A stretch of DNA of 64,000 bases. It comes from Spiroplasma clarkii (GTDB lineage Bacteria > Bacillota_I > Bacilli_A > Mycoplasmatales > Mycoplasmataceae). Both the position numbers and the translations under genes were made by a program. How positions within the stretch are numbered: the stretch's first letter is position 1; every line of letters begins with the position of its first letter. Shown in pieces: positions 35,186-45,772 of this stretch. The stretch lies in contig NZ_CP024870.1 in assembly GCF_002795265.1 (NCBI RefSeq), positions 1,302,001-1,366,000 of the forward strand, given 5' to 3'. The notes under the pieces are model-generated. The model saw nothing but the letters and a program-made list of their open reading frames with translations, was not told where the DNA came from and searched no databases.

Positions 35186-35213
35186 AAAACGACCCTAAAA
35201 AGGGTCGTTTTTT
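35186..35213 (-). terminator. terminator after nitroreductase (and five-gene operon)
   Basis: AAAACGACCC-TTTTT-GGGTCGTTTT on the minus strand, then T-rich; strong stem, no other terminator is seen between here and 45525. Confidence 0.9.
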
Positions 35214-35859
35214 ACTTAATGACTTTATAGACATCTGTTTCTGGTCGACGAATTTTATCAAAGGCATGATAATGTCTCTGATTTTTATCCACTTTTCCAA
35301 CAAATGCAGCCACACAAACAAATTCATTGTTTAAATCAATTAACTGGTGTTTTTGTAAAACTGCTTCAATTTTTCTTGGTTCCATACCTTCAACTGGACA
35401 AAAATCAATTCCAATTTCTTCTGCAGTAACCAGTGCACAACCCAATGAAATGTAGGCCTGACGAGCTACAAACTCTTCATTGGTGATTGCATACCCCTCT
35501 ATTACATTGTTATAAGCATTTATTCGATATTGCTTTGCTTTTTCAAAATCAACTGGGACATTACGGTCATTTTGTTCTGGCATAACTTTGTTTTTAACAA
35601 AATCTGCTTTATAACCTAATCAGATGATCATTGCTGAAGCATCAACAGTTCCTGGTTGATTTCAACAAAACTCTTTTAATTCTTCACGAATTGCTTTATT
35701 TTCTAAGTAGATAACTCGATAGGGCTCTAAACCCACTGATGAAGGTGCTCATCTAATTGATTCTAAAATTTCTTCAACTTCAGTTGTTGTCAATTTGTAA
35801 TCAACAATATATTTTTTTGGTGAACGTCTTTTTTTAATATAATCTAATGTTTTTGACAT
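35212..35859 (-). CDS. nitroreductase-family FMN oxidoreductase
   Basis: 215 aa. N-terminal YIKKRRSPKKY (FMN phosphate binding), IRWAPSSVGLEPYRVIYLEN, and C-terminal VCVAAFVGKVDKNQ with the NfsB/NfnB-like fold; EEIGIDFCPVEGMEP is typical of NAD(P)H-dependent nitroreductases. GGAGG 11 nt before ATG. A TATAAT stands just upstream (35892 region), so it may have its own promoter, but read-through from the helicase operon is possible. Confidence 0.88.
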
Positions 35860-35907: not shown

Positions 35908-36504
35908 TTAATCTAATTTAAATCAGAATTCACCAACTTCATTATCAAAAACAACCCCATCCCCATTAATGTAAACTCTATTTTTGTAAATTTGTACTTC
36001 AACTTCTGAATGGGGTTGTTCAAAATAATCATTATCCTGGTAGGTTGTAGTTAGTTTCAAAACCCTTTGATTTTTGCTACCAATTAAACGACGAGTTCTA
36101 TCTAATTGACGAATTAAAAAAGGTCCATCAATCAGAATATCTATTTTATTTAAAATTTCTTGATATTCTTCATAAATGTTTTCATACAAATAACCTGTGA
36201 AGCAAATGATTGTGAGATTAATTTTATGACAAAAATCAATAATTTCTTTTAAGGCAGTTGGTTGCAAAAATGGCTCCCCACCCAATAAGGTTATTCCCTC
36301 TAAATCATATTTTTCTTTTGATTCTAAAATTTTTTCAAGAATTAAACTAGTGGGAACAAAGAATTTTTTTTCAAGTGGTAACATCTCTTGATTAGAGCAA
36401 CCGCGGCAATTTAATTTGCAGCCTTGAAACCAAATCACAAATCTACTTCCAGGTCCTTCAATGCTGCTATTGGTTAAAAATTTGGCAATATTTATATTAG
36501 ACAT
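35908..36504 (-). CDS. NrdG-like 4Fe-4S radical-SAM protein
   Basis: 198 aa. WFQGCKLNCRGCSNQEM gives the CxxxCxxC iron-sulfur motif at residues 30-37; ITLLGGEPFLQP is the GGEP SAM-binding motif; PFLIRQLD and RRLIGSKNQRVL follow as in activases of the NrdG class. Those proteins generate a glycyl radical on a partner enzyme. No NrdD or other glycyl-radical enzyme is in this window; the gene overlaps the AAA+ gene by 8 nt (ATG inside its end), as the last gene of a five-gene operon. TTG at 36534 is a less likely start. Target unknown. Confidence 0.85.
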
Positions 36505-38308
36505 TAATTTTAAAAATGATTTGGTTTTGATCAATAGCTGTTAAAATTTTAGTTCCTGGTCTTAAGTTTTGCAAGTTTGTAAAAATAAATTCAGAAAGTG
36601 GGTCAACTAAGTTTGTTTCTAATGAGTTTAAAACATCCCTACCTCCTCTTCTCTCATCGGCATCTTTTAATAAAACATTCAATACTTGTGCATTAGTTAA
36701 ATCTATGTGCAATTCTGCTTTGTATTTCTCATAAATAGCAATTTGAATTGGTCTTACTTTTTGTTTTACAATTTGAGATTTTAATTTTAAATCGCTAATA
36801 AAATTGAATGGCACAATATTGTTACCAAATCTCCCTAACAGTTCTGGACGATTTAATTCAAAATTAAAATGATGTTGAACTTTGTTGATAAATTCTTTGT
36901 AAACCTGTTCTTTATTTGGGTTTGGTTGCACGTCTGCTGCACCAATATTTGAAGTAAAGATAATAAAACTTTCACTAAAGCTTACTGTTTGGCCTGTGTT
37001 ATCAGTTAAACGCCCATCCTCTAGAATTTGTAAAAACTTATCAAAGATTTTTGGGCTTGCTTTTTCTATTTCATCAAATAATATTACTGAAAAGGGTTTT
37101 TGTTTTATTGCATTAGTTAATTGTCCCCCACCTTCAAAACCAACATAGCCAGGGGGAGCCCCAATTAATTTTTGATCTGCATTTTCTTGACCATACTCAG
37201 ACATATCAAAACGAATTAAACTTGCTTCATCATTGAATAAAAATTGAGCAATCGCTTTTGCTAATTCAGTTTTACCAGTTCCTGTTGGACCAACAAAGAA
37301 CAAAGTTCCCTTTGGTTTACTACGTTTTGCTGAATATGTTATTCCAGTTAGACCTGTATAGGCTTTGTAAATTACTTTAGCAACTTTGTCTACTGCATCA
37401 TCTTGTCCGATTACACGTTTTTTTAATTCATTTTTAATTGATAACATTTTTTCATAACTTAAATCTTCTCAAGGTGAGGTTTTTTCTCCAAACTTATAAA
37501 TATTAAATAGTTTTAAAAAACCAATTGGTTGATTAAAATTACATGAAAATTTTACAAAGTGAGCTAATTCCTTGATGGTTCAACCCTCAGTTGCATCAAC
37601 AATATTTTCAAATTCAGTACTTAAATCTGTTACTTGAATTCTAGATTTTACTGTACTTAAAAATTCTTGACGCTCAGCGCGATTTGGTTTAGGTAGAGTA
37701 GCTATTATAATTTCTGGATTATCCAAGTATAAACTTGGAGGTAGTTGATTAATTTTTTTTGTAATTAAAACTACACAATTCATCAAGTCATCAATTTTTG
37801 AAATTACAAATTTTGCTTCTTTTAATGTCTTTGCAAATTCTGTTAGCACTCCTCTGTCTTCTGCATCTAATGACATGTCACTAAAAACAAAATCTGTGTA
37901 GTCAGCAATAAAAGCCATTTTTCTTTCATCACCTCTATTTAAATTTTTATTTAGCAATGAGAAAAATTCAATTGGTTTTTTTAAAGGAATAGTTTCATCT
38001 GAATTAGTTTCAGTCTCTTCAGTACCAAACAATTCAGCAAAATTATCACCTGCAGCTTCACCAGTTTTTACCTGATCGGTTTTTGTTAAAATTAGGTTTT
38101 TTAAATTATATCCTTTAACTCCTGAATTTTTGTCATAAATGAAATGATCACTATATTTTTTTTCACCAAAAATATAGTTTAAATATTCATGAATATTTAC
38201 ATACTTCCCATTTAATTCATAGATATCATCAACATTGCCTTCCAAAATAATTGCTTTTTTAATTCCAATTAAATTTCTTAATTGATTTAATTCTTTTTTT
38301 ACACTCAT
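36497..38308 (-). CDS. ClpB/ClpA-like AAA+ ATPase with unusual N-terminal domain
   Basis: 603 aa, Trp-TGA at 37580. Residues 1-240 form an unfamiliar domain that looks like a degenerate P-loop ATPase (IGIKKAIILEGNVDDIYEL, MAFIADYTDFVFSD, PEIIIATLPKPNRAERQEFL), followed by a complete second Clp-type AAA+ module: GQDDAV, VGPTGTGKTELAKAI (Walker A, 340-347), GAPPGYVGFEGGG pore loop, VILFDEIEKA (Walker B, about 409-413), IIFTSNIG sensor 1, RRGGRD sensor 2 and the ClpB D2-small domain. So it should be a hexameric unfoldase/remodeller without a Clp protease interaction loop that I can see. AGGAGAG overlaps the stop of the upstream gene. Confidence 0.88.
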
Positions 38309-38317
38309 AAAACTCTC

Positions 38318-39409
38318 CTATTTCTGTGAATCAGATTTTTTCTTCTTCAATATTTCACTACGCTTGGCAATATATTTTGGTTCACGATACTGTTTATTAA
38401 ATGCAGCTGTTGATTGAACACCTTGTTCATGTAATTTTTTTAAGAAACTATCTGCATCAATATCATGCTCATGACCCTCAAAGCCTTCATAATTATAAAC
38501 AAAACTTCCATCTAATCTTACAATAAAACTTGCAGTTTCTCCACTAACTTTTTCTCCATGAATTAAAATGACATTTTTCTCTTCAATTTTTCTAATATTT
38601 TCTTCTATCACAATATAACCAACCTCGCAGATTGCTTTAACTATTTTTATAACTGCATCTTTTCTAACTGCCTCTTGTTCTGCTTTTTTTGAAGCATTCA
38701 TTAAAAACTGTTTTGTAGCACTACTAAAATTTTCTGAATTGGTATTTTGTAAAAATTCCTTGGCATCTGTTTGAATTGCTTTCACCAAATCTTCATCAGC
38801 CTCATATAATTTTATTGCTTGTCTTACAACTTCTTTTGCTTGATATGCTATTGATTCCTTGGTTTCAACAAGGTAATCATTAACTTTACTAATGATTTGA
38901 GATGTGGTTAGATTTATAAACTTAACCTCATTACTGTCTAAATATTTTTGAACTAATGCTTTGTCATCAATACTATTTTGTAAGTTTAAGATTTCACTTT
39001 TTAAATCATTATAGTTCAAACTAAGATGTTCTTGCAATTTTTTTGTAATTGCCATTTGCTCTTTTTTAACTACATCTCTTTTTAAATTATAAATTTGAGT
39101 TTTAAACTCAGCAATTGCTTCTCTTTTCTTTTCTGCCATTCTTTGCAATTCATGATATTTTTCAACTGCAACATGGGTTTCCCTTTTTATCTCATTTGCA
39201 GATTTTTCTAAAGATTTTAGATCATTAATTTCATTTAAAACCCTTTCTTTAATTTTTAAAAGCTGTTCCTCATAAAATTTTGAATTGTCAATCTCTTGAC
39301 AATGACTAATTAATTCTTTGATATATTCTAACAATGTTTCGATATCAGTTTTTATAAAATTAAACTGCTTTTGACAGTTAAATAAAATTTCTTCTGCAGA
39401 CATACTCAT
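38318..39409 (-). CDS. coiled-coil protein of the helicase/AAA+ operon
   Basis: 363 aa with no TGA needed. Residues 1-230 are almost entirely helical, Lys/Glu-rich with heptads (e.g. ETHVAVEKYHELQRMAEKKREAI); residues about 250-345 form a small alpha/beta domain (IVKAICEVGYIVIEENIRKI, GETASFIVRLDGSFVYNYEGFEGHEHDIDADSFL), then a basic tail KKKKSDSQK. No TM or signal. GGAGGTAATTGAT before ATG. Likely a structural or adaptor partner of the AAA+ ATPase encoded 9 nt downstream. Confidence 0.85.
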   Translation of the reverse strand: MSMSAEEILFNCQKQFNFIKTDIETLLEYIKELISHCQEIDNSKFYEEQLLKIKERVLNEINDLKSLEKSANEIKRETHVAVEKYHELQRMAEKKREAIAEFKTQIYNLKRDVVKKEQMAITKKLQEHLSLNYNDLKSEILNLQNSIDDKALVQKYLDSNEVKFINLTTSQIISKVNDYLVETKESIAYQAKEVVRQAIKLYEADEDLVKAIQTDAKEFLQNTNSENFSSATKQFLMNASKKAEQEAVRKDAVIKIVKAICEVGYIVIEENIRKIEEKNVILIHGEKVSGETASFIVRLDGSFVYNYEGFEGHEHDIDADSFLKKLHEQGVQSTAAFNKQYREPKYIAKRSEILKKKKSDSQK

Positions 39410-39426
39410 ATCAATTACCTCCTTAT

Positions 39427-41664
39427 TTATTTCACAACCATATTAGATGATAAGTTTGAACCATAAATTAATTTTAATTTTTCATATATTTTTGTAATAA
39501 TAGTTGCATCAATTTTTTTTGATTTGCTTAAAACAAATTTGATTCAAGCAATTTTAATTTCAATTGGCAGCGTTTGTAGCTCAGGTTCTAATAACTCATT
39601 CATCACTGCATTAGCTTTACTAATGTCTGAAATTGCTTCTTTAATTTTTTGTTTTTTCTGACTTGTTTGATCTAAATTTATCTCATGCTCGGTGTAATCA
39701 TTCAAATCAGGATAGAATTGATTTAGACATTCAGCAACATTTAATAAATATTTATCATAGTTTTTAATCTCAGTTAAATCATTTGTAACAACAAATAATT
39801 GTTCTAACATTTGATTATAATTATCCCTAGCAATTTTAAAATCTGCTTGCAAACATGCTTTGGTTATTTTCCCAATTAGATTAATTACAGTAACTTGTTT
39901 TTTTCAAACTGGGGAATGAAATTTTTCAATTTCAAGTAAATCAGCTCTTAAATTATTCTTGGTATACTCTCACAATCACAAATTACTTTCACAAATATTT
40001 TTTTCTCAACCGTCAATCGAATTGCGAGCTAAAATTTGATTGATTCTCAGAACAAAATTAAAATCAGTGGCAAATATTTTTTTATCAATTGCTTCTAACA
40101 AGTCTACAAGAATTTTCTCATCTTTAAATTTATAATTATTCAATATTGTGATAATCTCATCATTATTGTAATTTTTAAATTCTTTCAATAAGACCTCTTT
40201 TAAACAATCTTGGATAAAAGTCATAGCCTTTGAATTTACTTGCTTGTTTAGACTGGTAATTATTTGTTCATAAAAATTTGCATCTTCAAGATTTGCTAAA
40301 AGCTGTTTTTGAATTATTGGTTTGATTTCATTTAGTAAACCAATTCTCCTAAATAGGCTAAAAATTCATGAACAACTTGTGAATTTTTTTTCAACAAGTT
40401 TACTTTCTAAAACTAATTTTATTCTACCAACATTATTGCTAAAGAGTTGTTGTAAATTAATTTTGTCTCTAAATTTATAAGCATAAACTAGTGGCACTTG
40501 AATATTTGCAGATTCAATTTCTCGGTTCACTAATGCATAAGCACTAATTTTATTATCTGAATCAATATAGATTAATGAATTTGTATCCATAAATTGCTCA
40601 GAAATAAAATCTGTGTGGGCAATAATTCTTTCATCACGATATTCAATAGTCTTATCATTTGATTTTGAATTGTAAATTATTAAATATTTAATGTTGTTGA
40701 TAAGATCTTTGCTTTTTAAAAAGTCATCAACTGAAGAAATATCTTGACCATTTACAAGTAATAAATTACAAGTTGACCTAACATTAATATCTGAAATTAA
40801 TTCTGGGTTTCTTATAAACTCATTTTCATTTGCAAGTTTTACTTTTGGAACAAACTTGTTTTTTGTTTTTTTTGAATACTTCTCAACAACTTCTGTAAAT
40901 ACTTTAATTGGATTATTTTTATTTACTGCAAAATATATTTCTAAATTTTTCTCATCAGTTTTGATTTTAAATTCCCCAGTTGATTCTAATTCAATTCAAG
41001 CTTCAATTGCACAATTAACTTTTACTGTTTGCTTTTGAGCAATTGACAAATCTTTGACACTAACTCCACTGGTAATTTCAATTGCAGTGACAGTTGCTTT
41101 TTCTCCAAAAATCTCTTGATTATTGTCTATAAACTTTTTAGTATTTTCATCAATAAATGTTTCAGTATAATAATTAGAACCTAAATGACTTAATGATAAT
41201 TTGCTTGAAGTTTTTGAATTATTTATTTTTTTATCTCAATCAGTATCCTTAACAATTTCATATTGATTTGTTAATGGATCATAAATTCATTTAGCATCAA
41301 AATTTTTATTTGATTGTGAAATTCAATATTCTTTCTTTTCAAATCTTGCCTTAAGTTCATCATCTACTAAAATTTTATTAAGACTAGTTTCTATTTTTAA
41401 TGTGTCTCAACCAGCATAATTTTGGATTAGTTTAATTAATTTAAAATTAACTAAATCATTAAAAGCTTTTTGAAAAAGTTCTTGTTTTAAGATTTTAAAG
41501 TCCCTGTCTAAAACATCTGCAATTGATTTTTCTTTATTTGGGTATTCTAAAATAATTGACAAAATTAAAAATTCCATAAATGTTGGTTTTCTAGTTTCAG
41601 AATATTTAATTTTTATTGGTAAACAATACTTTTCATAAATAATTTCAATTTTATCAAATACCAT
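39427..41664 (-). CDS. 745-aa protein of the helicase/AAA+ operon, unknown
   Basis: Single frame with several Trp-TGA codons (41407, 40366, 40006, 39544 and others). The first 90 residues read like a winged-helix pair (MEFLILSIILEYPNKEKSIADVLDRDFKILKQELFQKAFNDLVNFKLIKLI). A middle beta-rich part (ATVTAIEITSGVSVK, VNCAIEAWIELESTG) is followed by a Rossmann-like segment with a hint of a degenerate phospholipase-D-like domain (IKYLIIYNSKS..., ERIIAHTDF), lacking HxK. The C-terminal 350 residues are helical. ATG has AGGAGGT; 12 nt after the helicase stop. Function unknown; its place in the operon suggests it connects helicase and AAA+ ATPase. Confidence 0.8.
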
Positions 41665-41676
41665 TTTTCTTACCTC

Positions 41677-44600
41677 CTATAAAATTTCTTGAACCTGTAG
41701 TAGACCTCCATCATGTTCAATCTTAGCAATAATGTCTGCATAAACTTCAAAAGTATTAGAAACATTTATATCTGCAACTGTTGGAATTTTTACACTAATG
41801 TCTTTGACAGCTCGCTGTGCTCCAATGACTATCAACAATTCTCTAGCTCTACTGAAAGCCACATTAATTCTTTCATATTTCCTTAAAAAATCTCTGCCGC
41901 TTTTTGATGAAATGTTTTTTGGATTACGCACCATATTAACTATTACATAATCTGCTTCTTTGCCTTGAAAGTCATCAACAGTACTTACTACAAAATCAAA
42001 ATTTTTAAACTTTGCTTTTTTAAGTTCTCTATTTAATTTGCTGACATGTAATCCATAAAAACTAATTACTGCTAGGGATGGTTTAGTTTTTAATTCTTTT
42101 GTGGCTAGGGTTTCATCAATTCTTTTCATAACTTCAACAGTTAAATCAATTTCTAAATCATTATATAAACTTGTTGATGTTTCTAAAGATTTTTCATAGT
42201 GAACTTCTCCACCAACATCATTTGTTGAATCAATTCAATACACTGAACTTTTTGAATTAATTATCTCATTGTTATATTTATTAAATACATTTAAGTCATG
42301 ACGTTTTTGCTCACTAACCTCTTGGTCAACCCTCAATTCTTGATCATAAAACTTGTTAACAACATCCATAATTTGTTGGTGACTACGATATTGAGTTTTT
42401 AACATAGTAGTTAAACTACTATTATTGGCAGCAATCAAATTTTTAAAAATTGATTTATCAAGTAACTCAAACATTTGATTGTAACTATAATCTTTACCTG
42501 TGACTTCATTAACTTGATCTACATCTGCTTGTTGTAATTTTAAAATTGGCGGTAATTGACGATAATCACCAACCAAAATTAATGACTTTCCATAAATCAA
42601 GGGCATTAAAATTTCAATTAAAGTTGCTTTTGAAGCCTCATCAATAATTACAGTATCTACATCCATTGTTTTTAAACTAATTTCTTCTAGACCCATTTTT
42701 TTTGCAAAGTTATCATTGTTATACTTGAATAAATTTGATGAAGTTAATGTCATTCCATAAATGTTGACAAGTTTGTTTATGATACCACTAGTGTATTTTT
42801 TTGATTCTTGAATCATTTGGTTAGTAAATTTGTTGGTTGGGATTTCTTGTTCCCAGTTATTTGTAATTCCATAACTTGTTTGTGCATAATCTGAAATTGA
42901 CTCAAATAAATTTTTAAATTCTTTTTTCCTTCTGATACTATTTTGTAATTTATCATTATATTTTTTTAATTGATTTTTAATATCATTCTCAAGGTCAACA
43001 TCAGTTATTTGCATTTGTAAGTCAAATTTATGATTAACAAATCTAATTAATTCTCGGAGTTCTTGGCCAGTGGCACCAGTTTGTTCTGAAATTTTTGCTC
43101 TACTTACTTGTAAATCATTTTTTCTAACTTCAAGAGCAGCCATATTTTCTTTGGTTGATTTTCTTTCAGCAACTTTTTGTAATTGATATGTCAAATCTGT
43201 TTTTAAAATTTTTAAAGCACCTTTGAATTTATTTAAAATCTCTAAGTAATCTTGTAATTGAGTTTCTTTTAGTAAGAGATTTTCTAAACCATTTAATCTT
43301 TGTTCTTCTTGAGTTGCCAATTCAAATTCAGCATTTCTCTTAAATTTTTGAATATTTTTTTTAGCTTCAACAATCCCAGCAAAAATATGATTTTCAAATA
43401 AAACTTTGTTGCTCAGTTTTTTTATTTCTGAAAATAGATCTTGCTTATTAATTTTATAATCAAAATTATTTAAAGTAAATTCATCCATTAAAAATTGTAC
43501 TTCTGTTTCATATGTCTTTAAAATATTTTCAGAAATATGCACAGCGCTTTTAAATTCAAGGTCATTGAACTCTGTTATTAAATTTTCAACATTAAATATT
43601 TCATCATCAAGTTCATTTTTTTGTCTAATTTGTGCAATCTCTTGTTCTTTGATTGAACTAATTTCATTATCAATATCTGAAATTTGTTTGTTTAATGTTC
43701 GCAATTGAGTACTACTTTGGTGATAACCTCTATTTGCATTTAAAAGTGCTTCAAGTTTATTTTCAATTTCATTAAACTCAATAATTGTTGTTTCTTCAAC
43801 CTGGGTGTCATCATAAATACTTTTTGCAATTGACTTATAATAATTGTAAACAACTCTTTCTGGTGAAAAATTATTCTTCTCACTACTTTTTAAATTAAGT
43901 TGATTAACTAATCTGACTCGATTAATATTTGGTTCAAAAGGTAAACGAGTAATAACATTATTAATTGCTTGGTGGTTTTGACTTGATACTAAAATCTTGC
44001 GATCCATTTTTGATAACTGATAAATAATTTCACAAATCACTTGAGTTTTACCAGTACCTGGCGGTCCTTGTAACATGAAAATATCTTTTGAATTCAATGC
44101 CTTAATTACTGCATCTTTTTGTTCACGATTTAAACTAAAGTAAAATTCCTCATCAGCAATTTCAATTTCATTTGATTGATCTGATAGTTGAATTAATTTT
44201 GTATTAAATAAATAATTTACTAGGTATGGGTTTTTAATATTTCCCTCACTAATTCTTTTTAAAACTTGACGACATCTGTCAATTAAAACGTCTTCACCAA
44301 TACCGACATAAGCTAAGTAACCACAATTTAATTTATTGATATTATTTGGTGCATTAAAAAGACTTGGTTCTAGTTCCCCATTGACCTCATACAATAACCC
44401 ATAAACTTTTCACTCTTGCAGTTCCTTACTAAACTCAGTTTCACAATACCTTAATTCTTTGGTACTACCAAAAATAATCTCTCCTTTTTCTTTTCAATAT
44501 TCTTGTAAAGTTTTACTTTGAGCTGTGGCTGCAATGTAAGTATTGATACCAACAATTTCAGTAGTTTCCCTAGTACGCTCAAAGTTAAACTCAAAAATTT

Positions 44601-45525
44601 CATGAATGTTTTTTTGTAAATTATAAATTGGTGGAAATGCTTTATTCATTGCAAAAGGTACCAGAGCAAGCTCTTGCATTTTCTTTAATCTATTTAACTT
44701 TTCAACTTGATCACACAAGATTTCAATCATGATGGCTGAAACAACCTCATATTTTATCCTTGAATTTTTAATTATTCCTTCAAATTTTAATTCAAAATAT
44801 GCTGAAGAACTTTTCTCAGAAAAACTCATTTGTTTATCTGCAATAGTTTCTGTTAAATCTCTTTTATCTATTTTAATAAATTCAAGAGCTTTTGAATTTA
44901 AATATGGCAATGAGTTTTTTCTTTGTAAGTTTAAAAAATCCATTGAAAAATCTAAATAATTTAATCAGCGAGTTTTTTCTGCTTCAAAGTTTGATTGTAG
45001 TTTATTAATTTCCCCAATTGTTTCAGAGTTAATAATTCCTCTACGCAATAACTCCTCTGGTGCAATTTGACCTTTATAATTAATAATTTGAATTGGACAA
45101 TCTTCAATAATAGTTTCAAAATCTTGTGCTACTGGTTTTAGACGAGTTTGAAAAATTGAAACCACTGTTAGATATGGTTCTTCTGGATTAATATTTACAA
45201 AGAAACCAATGAAGGTATTTTTTGGCAATTTTCTTTGGGTATCTGTATTAAATTCAATTCTAATGATGGCGTCAAATACTTGTTTTTCTGTATTTTTACT
45301 TGAAAAGGTACGAGCTTTGTCATCAATTAAACAAATAAACGCACTCTTGCAAAGAGCATTGCGCAAGATATTTTGGAACTCTTGAAAAGAATTCACTCCT
45401 TCAATACCTAATTTTTCAACAATTAGATAAAGTTGTGCTAAATTATCTTTAAATAAGACATTTTGCAAATATGAAAAATCTATAAAAAGTGTTTTACTGC
45501 CATTATTTACAATAATATTTCCCAT
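41677..45525 (-). CDS. UPF1/DNA2-type SF1 helicase with long coiled-coil insertion
   Basis: 1282 aa in one frame (Trp-TGA at 44965, 44494, 42235). Residues 1-440 are an N-terminal region of unknown fold. Motif I MLQGPPGTGKTQVI at 485-498; motif Ib SSQNHQAINNVITRL; a 350-residue insertion rich in Glu/Lys/Leu coiled coil (about 570-900); then motif II IIDEASKAT (DEAS 962-965), motif III GDYRQLPP (986-993), motif IV QYRSH (1045-1049), motif V TVDDFQGKEADYVIV (1182-1192) and motif VI NVAFSRAR (1221-1228). This is the SF1B AAA_11/AAA_12 architecture of RNA/DNA helicases seen in many defence islands. It is the first gene of a five-gene operon; GGGGG stands before ATG. Confidence 0.93.
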
Positions 45526-45667: not shown

Positions 45668-45772
45668 TTAATTTTTAGGGAATTTCACACCAATTACAAC
45701 TAAATGCAAAATAGCATTGTGGTTTGTTATTGTCAAGAATTTTTTAGTCAATAACCTAGTGTCTTTTGTCAT
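45668..45772 (-). pseudogene. 34-codon ORF, probably 3' end of a lost gene
   Basis: Reads MTKDTRLLTKKFLTITNHN, then AILHLVVIGVKFPKN and TAA, 11 nt before a good terminator. The frame is open a further 8 codons upstream to a TAG. No ribosome site. Codon use looks like real coding sequence, so I take it as the surviving tail of a deleted gene with its terminator. Confidence 0.4.

What the first reader, a model, noticed from the sequence alone, without database searches (positions are those of the whole stretch)
35908..45525. Candidate undescribed five-gene system: SF1 helicase, unknown 745-aa protein, coiled-coil protein, ClpB-like AAA+ and NrdG-like activase
The five frames share one promoter and are spaced 12, 17, 9 and -8 nt, with no terminator until 35213: that is a dedicated operon. 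A UPF1/DNA2-type helicase with a 350-residue coiled-coil insertion, an AAA+ remodeller of the ClpB D2 class with a strange N-terminal domain, and an orphan radical-SAM activase do not belong to any housekeeping pathway I know. Helicase plus AAA+ plus Fe-S enzyme recalls defence or nucleic-acid quality control islands. An activase without its glycyl-radical enzyme suggests either a new radical target (perhaps the 745-aa protein) or a moonlighting SAM chemistry on nucleic acid.
Basis: partly seen in the sequence, partly recalled or inferred. Interest (0 to 1): 0.9.

Follow-up and report, generated by a model that had tools for sequence, protein, structure and literature searches.

The report
Undescribed five-gene RNA-targeting conflict operon
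Five genes in a Spiroplasma-type bacterium form a fixed operon that recurs, in the same order, in bacteria and archaea of at least ten phyla; in other genomes one of the five carries an RNA-cutting domain, so it looks like an undescribed defence system that adds a radical enzyme and a protein-remodelling motor to a helicase and a nuclease.

Summary
In detail: five co-directional, tightly packed genes (UPF1-like SF1 helicase, 745-aa protein, coiled-coil protein, ClpB-D2-like AAA+, NrdG-like radical SAM) lie at 35908-45525. It is a system, not chance. In the window's family the 745-aa, coiled-coil, AAA+ and radical-SAM genes occur together in 38 of 60 genomes and are all absent from 21. In named genomes, 61 of 74 loci found through the AAA+ N-terminus carry all five genes in the same order, across at least ten phyla including archaea, and the operon also sits on plasmids. 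Helicase plus winged-helix-nuclease is the core of CoCoNuT and Mokosh systems. Here the McrBC (CoCoNuT) or kinase/PLD (Mokosh) parts are replaced by a coiled-coil/AAA+/radical-SAM module. I read it as an undescribed RNA-targeting conflict system and a new variant of a known kind. The Spiroplasma effector lacks the HEPN and PIN motifs, and defence is inferred, not tested. The activase does not serve a known glycyl-radical enzyme: 13 of the 38 operon-bearing genomes have none.

The parts
41677..45525 (-). UPF1-like SF1 helicase, 1282 aa; Walker A at 44044-44067, coiled-coil-like insert about 42811-43845, motif II DEAS, motif VI VAFSRA
   Evidence: SMUBP2/Upf1/DNA2/Sen1; MkoA-like
39427..41664 (-). 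745-aa wHTH-platform protein ('P7' family). In other genomes this gene ends in HEPN, PIN or NYN RNase; in the window's lineage neither HEPN nor PIN motif is present
41335..41664 (-). N-terminal winged-helix part of the 745-aa protein, shared with type-1 and type-2 P7 proteins and weakly with MkoB
   Evidence: (pLDDT about 75-89 over most of residues 11-80)
38318..39409 (-). 363-aa coiled-coil protein (CC)
   Evidence: (hhalign E 1.8e-36 against an alignment of 52 CC proteins that includes the window's own)
38420..38677 (-). C-terminal alpha-4beta-alpha domain of CC with motif DGxxxYxxxGYxGxxCxxD in relatives; Cys replaced (GHEHD) in Spiroplasma
36497..38308 (-). 603-aa AAA+ protein: N-terminal region without P-loop plus ClpB-D2-like motor domain with intact motifs (Walker A 37268-37291, pore loop GYVG)
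35908..36504 (-). 198-aa NrdG/PFL-activase-like radical SAM protein; CX3CX2C at 36397-36420 and GGEP motif
45708..45736 (-). best promoter-like site upstream of the helicase gene (not above chance)
35186..35211 (-). inverted repeat followed by Ts, terminator-like by eye, downstream of the nitroreductase gene
   Evidence: read by eye; not found by the automatic scan
35212..35859 (-). nitroreductase-family gene, possibly co-transcribed but not a conserved member of the system

Best explanation
The operon is an undescribed RNA-targeting conflict (probably antiviral or anti-plasmid) system. Shown by sequence: (1) five genes that keep order and spacing across bacteria and archaea; (2) a UPF1-like SF1 helicase paired with a winged-helix platform protein whose C-terminus is, elsewhere, a HEPN, PIN or NYN ribonuclease with conserved active-site residues; (3) a third module of coiled-coil protein, AAA+ motor with intact ClpB-D2-type motifs and pore loop, and NrdG-like radical SAM protein with intact cluster and SAM motifs. 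Inferred mechanism: the helicase senses or loads on foreign transcripts or single strands and carries the winged-helix nuclease. The coiled-coil protein links this pair to the AAA+ ring. The ring, by threading or remodelling, holds the nuclease silent or re-arms it, in the place that the McrB GTPase takes in CoCoNuT systems. The radical SAM enzyme installs or senses a radical-dependent state on a system protein, most likely the coiled-coil or effector subunit. Accessory RNases (RNase III-like, DEDDh, NYN) next to some copies would finish degradation. In Spiroplasma the operon is a vertically kept core locus whose effector end has diverged or lost the HEPN/PIN site, so there it may act through its middle domain or be domesticated.
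For: Order and linkage: 61 of 74 loci complete; median gaps -4, -4, 9, -17 nt; same 38 of 60 genomes. Effector domains: Pfam DUF4145, PIN_4 to 1e-23, Zc3h12a NYN 2e-10; invariant RxxRNx3H; conserved D/E/D/D; shared N-terminal platform; DUF4145 is HEPN. Helicase. Known helicase plus wHTH-effector pairing: (PMC11090510). Mobility: plasmids; phyla intermixed in the AAA+ tree. Accessory RNases. Motifs. Fast evolution of the effector gene (34% median identity in the genus against 75% for the AAA+ protein).
Against: No phage or plasmid interference data. In the window's own genus the locus is fixed (20 of 20) and chromosomal rather than patchy, which suits a housekeeping or domesticated role, and the RNase motif is missing. 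Radical SAM is absent from a four-gene sister subtype in Mollicutes, so it is not essential to the core. Defence-island context was not tested systematically. The roles given to the AAA+ and radical SAM proteins are inference.
Confidence: 0.6

Rival explanations
1. A housekeeping RNA or translation quality-control machine (an NMD-like or ribosome-rescue complex): UPF1-like helicase plus RNase plus unfoldase that clears stalled complexes.
For: Fixed in all 20 sampled genomes of the window's genus and vertically inherited. UPF1/Sen1-like helicase. ClpB-like motor. PIN and Zc3h12a-type RNases work with UPF1 in eukaryotes (PMC5031192).
Against: All-or-none loss in related genera (21 of 60 genomes), patchy spread across phyla, plasmid carriage, swapped nuclease ends and a fast-evolving effector are typical of conflict systems.
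Confidence: 0.2
2. The radical SAM protein is an activase for a classical glycyl-radical enzyme (NrdD or PFL) and only hitchhikes in the operon.
For: NrdG family hit E 3e-28 and PFL-AE relatives.
Against: NrdD and its own NrdG are adjacent elsewhere in the genome; 13 of 38 operon-bearing genomes have neither NRDD nor Gly_radical genes; the NrdG score is below the equivalog cut-off; the gene is the last of the five in 61 complete loci of ten phyla.
Confidence: 0.04
3. A toxin-antitoxin-like or plasmid-stabilising addiction cassette: the AAA+/CC/radical SAM module restrains the RNase.
For: One RNase effector per cassette and plasmid copies.
Against: Five conserved genes with a helicase is unlike known addiction modules (general knowledge); whole-operon loss is common in relatives.
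Confidence: 0.1

Closest known systems
CoCoNuT type II/III restriction systems (CnuH helicase with CnuE wHTH-effector, CnuB/CnuC; PMC11090510)
   Same: UPF1-like SF1 helicase with a large coiled-coil insertion after Walker A; downstream winged-helix protein with an exchangeable nuclease (HEPN, PLD); AAA+ motor and coiled coils; predicted RNA targeting.
   Different: No McrB GTPase or McrC. The motor is a P-loop-less N-terminal region plus ClpB-D2 AAA+. PIN and NYN effectors. A dedicated radical SAM protein and a separate C-terminal alpha/beta domain on the coiled-coil protein.
Mokosh type I (MkoA/MkoB)
   Same: Helicase scores 293-360 bits to MkoA; N-terminal winged-helix part of type-2 P7 proteins matches MkoB (8 of 13, best 2e-4); Mokosh helicases fall near the PIN-type five-gene helicases in the tree, unresolved.
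   Different: No kinase; no HKD (PLD) motif in most P7 proteins; three extra genes; a true type I MkoA scores 719 bits.
PDC-S37/Hhe-type DUF4011 helicase loci with FHA/PP2C/kinase genes
   Same: Share the AAA+ plus 4Fe-4S radical SAM gene pair.
   Different: Different helicase, kinase signalling genes in several, no CC protein and no P7 protein recognised.
Class III ribonucleotide reductase activase NrdG and PFL activase
   Same: CX3CX2C and GGEP radical SAM core.
   Different: No glycyl-radical partner in the operon and none in 13 operon-bearing genomes; scores below the NrdG cut-off.
ClpB
   Same: D2 ATPase domain with Walker A/B, GYVG pore loop and sensor 2.
   Different: The ClpB match starts at residue 285 (ClpB 553-852); the N-terminal 280 residues lack a P-loop.

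Membership tests
CoCoNuT (type II/III) | McrB-family GTPase (CnuB) with McrC partner (CnuC) | tested here: not met
   No McrB or McrC family among the five genes; the motor is AAA_2/ClpB-D2; none annotated in plasmid copies
CoCoNuT (type II/III) | UPF1-like SF1 helicase with coiled-coil-rich insertion after Walker A | tested here: met
   insert judged from composition and position, not from a structure
CoCoNuT (type II/III) | Elongated wHTH protein with C-terminal nuclease effector | tested here: inconclusive
   Met in relatives (HEPN, PIN); in the window protein the wHTH is predicted but no HEPN or PIN motif is present and the end is unresolved
Mokosh type I | Serine/threonine kinase domain | tested here: not met
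   No kinase domain in the five window proteins and no kinase HxDxKxxN motif in 63 helicases
Mokosh | PLD-family nuclease with HKD motif | tested here: not met
   HKD-like pattern absent from the window protein and found in 8 of 62 P7 proteins. A PLD-like fold match of the middle domain (Z about 6) is weak
Mokosh | MkoA-family helicase | tested here: inconclusive
   308 bits to MkoA against 719 for a true type I MkoA; tree placement unresolved
HEPN RNase (relatives' P7 C-terminus) | Rx4-6H catalytic motif | tested here: met
   R674, R677, N678, H682 invariant in 27 aligned type-1 proteins; DUF4145 hit 4e-5. Not met in the window protein
PIN RNase (relatives' P7 C-terminus) | Conserved acidic residues of the PIN fold | tested here: met
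   PIN_4 E to 1e-23; D672, E702, D776 invariant and D755 nearly invariant. Not met in the window protein
NrdG equivalog | NCBIfam TIGR02491 cut-off (126.1 bits) and linkage to NrdD | tested here: not met
   98.7 bits; NrdD lies elsewhere with its own activase
Radical SAM superfamily | CX3CX2C cluster motif and GGEP | tested here: met
   70 of 70 systems and the window
Anti-phage defence system | Protects against phage or other mobile elements | not testable with these tools
   Only indirect support: plasmid carriage, horizontal spread, RNase effectors

The most novel reading that the evidence does not exclude
A radical SAM enzyme controls an immune helicase-ribonuclease complex: it puts a radical-derived mark (a glycyl radical or a cross-link) on the coiled-coil or effector subunit, and the AAA+ ring reads or erases that mark. 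This would be the first radical-chemistry switch in an RNA-targeting immune machine, and Spiroplasma would hold a domesticated copy.
Probability: 0.25. Interest if true: 0.92.

Novelty: new variant of a known kind. Interest (0 to 1): 0.8.

Why it matters
A five-gene system conserved in order from Spiroplasma to archaea, not found as a unit in PADLOC 2023, Pfam or the papers I could search, would add a widespread conflict machine. It joins a UPF1-like helicase to exchangeable HEPN, PIN and regnase-type (NYN) ribonucleases; PIN and regnase-type nucleases are partners of UPF1 in eukaryotic nonsense-mediated and regnase-dependent decay (PMC5031192), so it bears on the proposed immune origin of those pathways. 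It also brings radical SAM chemistry and a ClpB-type motor into a nuclease system and makes their roles testable in an ordinary gammaproteobacterial host.

Tried and rejected
Pfam, PADLOC and NCBIfam scans of the 745-aa and 363-aa proteins: no confident family. DUF2997 likeness of the CC C-terminus: only E 0.17 in one relative, so left as a lead; structural look-alikes (spermine synthase N-domain Z 9.9, KA1 Z 8.3) are weak. Glycyl-radical motif RVxG[FYW] in the five proteins: absent apart from 1 helicase of 63. Classical glycyl-radical partner: rejected. Structure of the 745-aa protein: mean pLDDT 57, C-terminal 200 residues unresolved; nothing was taken from it beyond the N-terminal wHTH and a weak PLD-like hint. 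Viral contigs: one locus by the AAA+ profile, none by the 745-aa profile. Phage records: only partial ClpA/ClpB-like matches. Literature searches found no description of the unit; subscription papers and most preprints are not held.

Full report
Observation. The five reading frames are real in translation table 4 (TGA=Trp), all on the minus strand, spaced 12, 17, 9 and -8 nt. The radical SAM gene starts at the ATG at 36504, whose first bases overlap the AAA+ stop codon. A shared promoter is likely but not shown: the best site is TTGACA-17-TATTTT at 45736-45708, and promoter-like sites in the region are not above chance. By eye a terminator-like repeat lies after the nitroreductase gene at about 35211-35186.

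It is a unit. In 24 relatives of the window's family (23 intact, one degraded) the five genes keep order and strand, with median gaps of 9, 2, 8 and -8 nt in the 23 intact copies. A 25th copy has about 3.5 kb inserted between the coiled-coil and AAA+ genes. Profile searches over 60 family genomes find the 745-aa, coiled-coil, AAA+ and operonic radical SAM genes in the same 38 genomes and none of them in 21; one incomplete assembly shows two of the four. The genus of the window has all of them in 20 of 20 genomes, often near leuS. The helicase was not searched genome-wide, but one search found it beside the other genes in all of these loci except one short contig.

It is not confined to Mollicutes. 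A search of Bacilli with the AAA+ N-terminal profile gave the same operon in non-Mollicute genomes. A scan of named genomes with patterns from that N-terminus gave 74 loci; 61 hold all five genes in the same order, with median gaps of -4, -4, 9 and -17 nt. Several of the other 13 are cut by contig ends. Taxa with complete loci include Bacillota, Mycoplasmatota, Spirochaetota, Bacteroidota, Campylobacterota, Pseudomonadota, Planctomycetota, Actinomycetota, Fibrobacterota, Synergistota and archaea. Because the loci were found through the AAA+ gene, the linkage of the other four genes was not imposed by the search. In the AAA+ tree several phyla are intermixed, with near-identical copies in bins labelled Bacteroidota and Bacillota. 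Bin contamination can mimic this, but complete plasmids of Polaromonas and Acinetobacter carry the same five genes, annotated only as AAA domain / PIN domain / hypothetical / AAA ATPase / 4Fe-4S single cluster; Moellerella, Photobacterium and Leisingera plasmids have matching helicase and AAA+ genes a few kb apart.

What the 745-aa protein is. Profile comparison joins the Spiroplasma family to two larger groups of the same operon position: profile columns 1-555 to type 1 (E 1.5e-12) and 7-605 to type 2 (E 1e-11); the two groups share their N-terminal 430 columns (E 1.4e-15). Type 1 ends in a HEPN domain: RxxRNxxxH is invariant in 27 sequences, one hits Pfam DUF4145 at 4e-5, and DUF4145 is a HEPN family (PMC3710099). 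Type 2 ends in a PIN domain (PIN_4, to 1e-23; conserved acidic residues). One archaeal copy ends in a Zc3h12a-type NYN RNase (2e-10). So the gene is a platform with an exchangeable RNase. A few groups, such as the Treponema copies, have an end that matches no family. The window's own protein has a predicted N-terminal winged helix but neither motif. Its last 200 residues remain unresolved, and a PLD-like middle domain is only hinted at (Z about 6). It evolves fastest of the five (median identity to the window in the genus 34%, against 51, 51, 75 and 67% for helicase, CC, AAA+ and radical SAM).

The other proteins. The helicase is nearest to SMUBP2, Upf1, DNA2 and Sen1 among solved structures and to MkoA in PADLOC. 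The AAA+ protein has one P-loop only, in a ClpB-D2-type domain with pore loop G[YF][VI]G in 74 of 74 relatives; its N-terminal 280 residues lack a P-loop. The NCBIfam CdvC hit at residues 161-253 (2e-4) suggests a degenerate classic AAA domain. The coiled-coil protein ends in an alpha-4beta-alpha domain (pLDDT about 90 or more). In most relatives it carries a motif like GYEGQAC; Spiroplasma has GFEGHEH. The radical SAM protein keeps CX3CX2C and GGEP in 70 of 70.

Is the activase an orphan? The genome has NrdD with an adjacent NrdG elsewhere, and 13 of 38 operon-bearing family genomes have neither an NRDD nor a Gly_radical gene. No glycyl-radical motif is conserved in the five proteins. So the protein most likely serves the system itself. 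A four-gene sister subtype without it exists in other Mollicutes, so it is a regulatory or maturing part rather than the catalytic core. The AAA+/radical SAM pair also recurs, without the coiled-coil and P7 genes, beside DUF4011-type helicases and kinase/FHA/phosphatase genes, again in helicase-centred loci.

How it most likely works. Helicase plus downstream winged-helix-nuclease is the arrangement described for CoCoNuTs and their relatives, where the helicase insertion is modelled to bind the winged-helix protein (PMC11090510). By analogy, the helicase finds foreign RNA or single strands and positions the RNase. The coiled-coil and AAA+ proteins take the place of CnuC/CnuB as a regulating motor, and the radical SAM protein sets a chemical state. 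The pairing and the domains are shown here; recognition, regulation and radical chemistry are inference. Some copies add an RNase III-like, DEDDh or NYN gene directly downstream, or an HTH regulator upstream, which fits RNA destruction.

Relation to known systems. It is not a CoCoNuT (no McrBC) and not a Mokosh (no kinase, no HKD motif), though it shares the helicase and, weakly, the platform N-terminus with Mokosh. I file it as a new variant of helicase-nuclease conflict systems. No paper found in the searchable library describes it.

Limits. Defence is untested. The defence-island context, the Spiroplasma effector end and the radical substrate are open.

Noticed in passing
L204 2051-10562, L205 8685-17213, L207 8380-17289, L209 8444-17712, L211 2187-11101, L089 8847-17702: A four-gene sister operon (helicase, about 600-700 aa, about 330-340 aa starting MSH, AAA+) without radical SAM in other Mollicutes, and as a second copy in two genomes of the window's genus; a third (L206) is degraded.
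   Followed up: partly
L055 2650-5877: A 3.5 kb insertion (a lipoprotein-like gene, a NagA-like gene, a DeoR-like regulator; judged by eye) splits the operon between the coiled-coil and AAA+ genes.
   Followed up: no
L043 (G042): The operon is degrading in one genome: helicase, 745-aa and radical SAM genes are broken by stops while the coiled-coil and AAA+ genes are open.
   Followed up: no
L144 12347-12847; also next to the operon in L133, L134, L150, L152: A 166-170 aa RNase III-like gene directly follows the radical SAM gene (gap 2 to -1 nt) in five genomes.
   Followed up: partly
L198 1-14150, L197 9989-20085, L087, L088, L090: The AAA+ plus 4Fe-4S radical SAM pair recurs with DUF4011-type helicases and, in several loci, FHA, kinase and PP2C genes: a second kind of locus that I found no description of.
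   Followed up: partly
L196 14715-16697: On an Acinetobacter plasmid the five-gene operon is followed by another small AAA / radical SAM / hypothetical trio; a DarT gene lies about 4.7 kb upstream of the operon.
   Followed up: no
window 39427-41664: The Spiroplasma 745-aa family has a nearly invariant YNSKxN motif (residues 331-336) in the middle domain, in the stretch that weakly resembles PLD nucleases.
   Followed up: no
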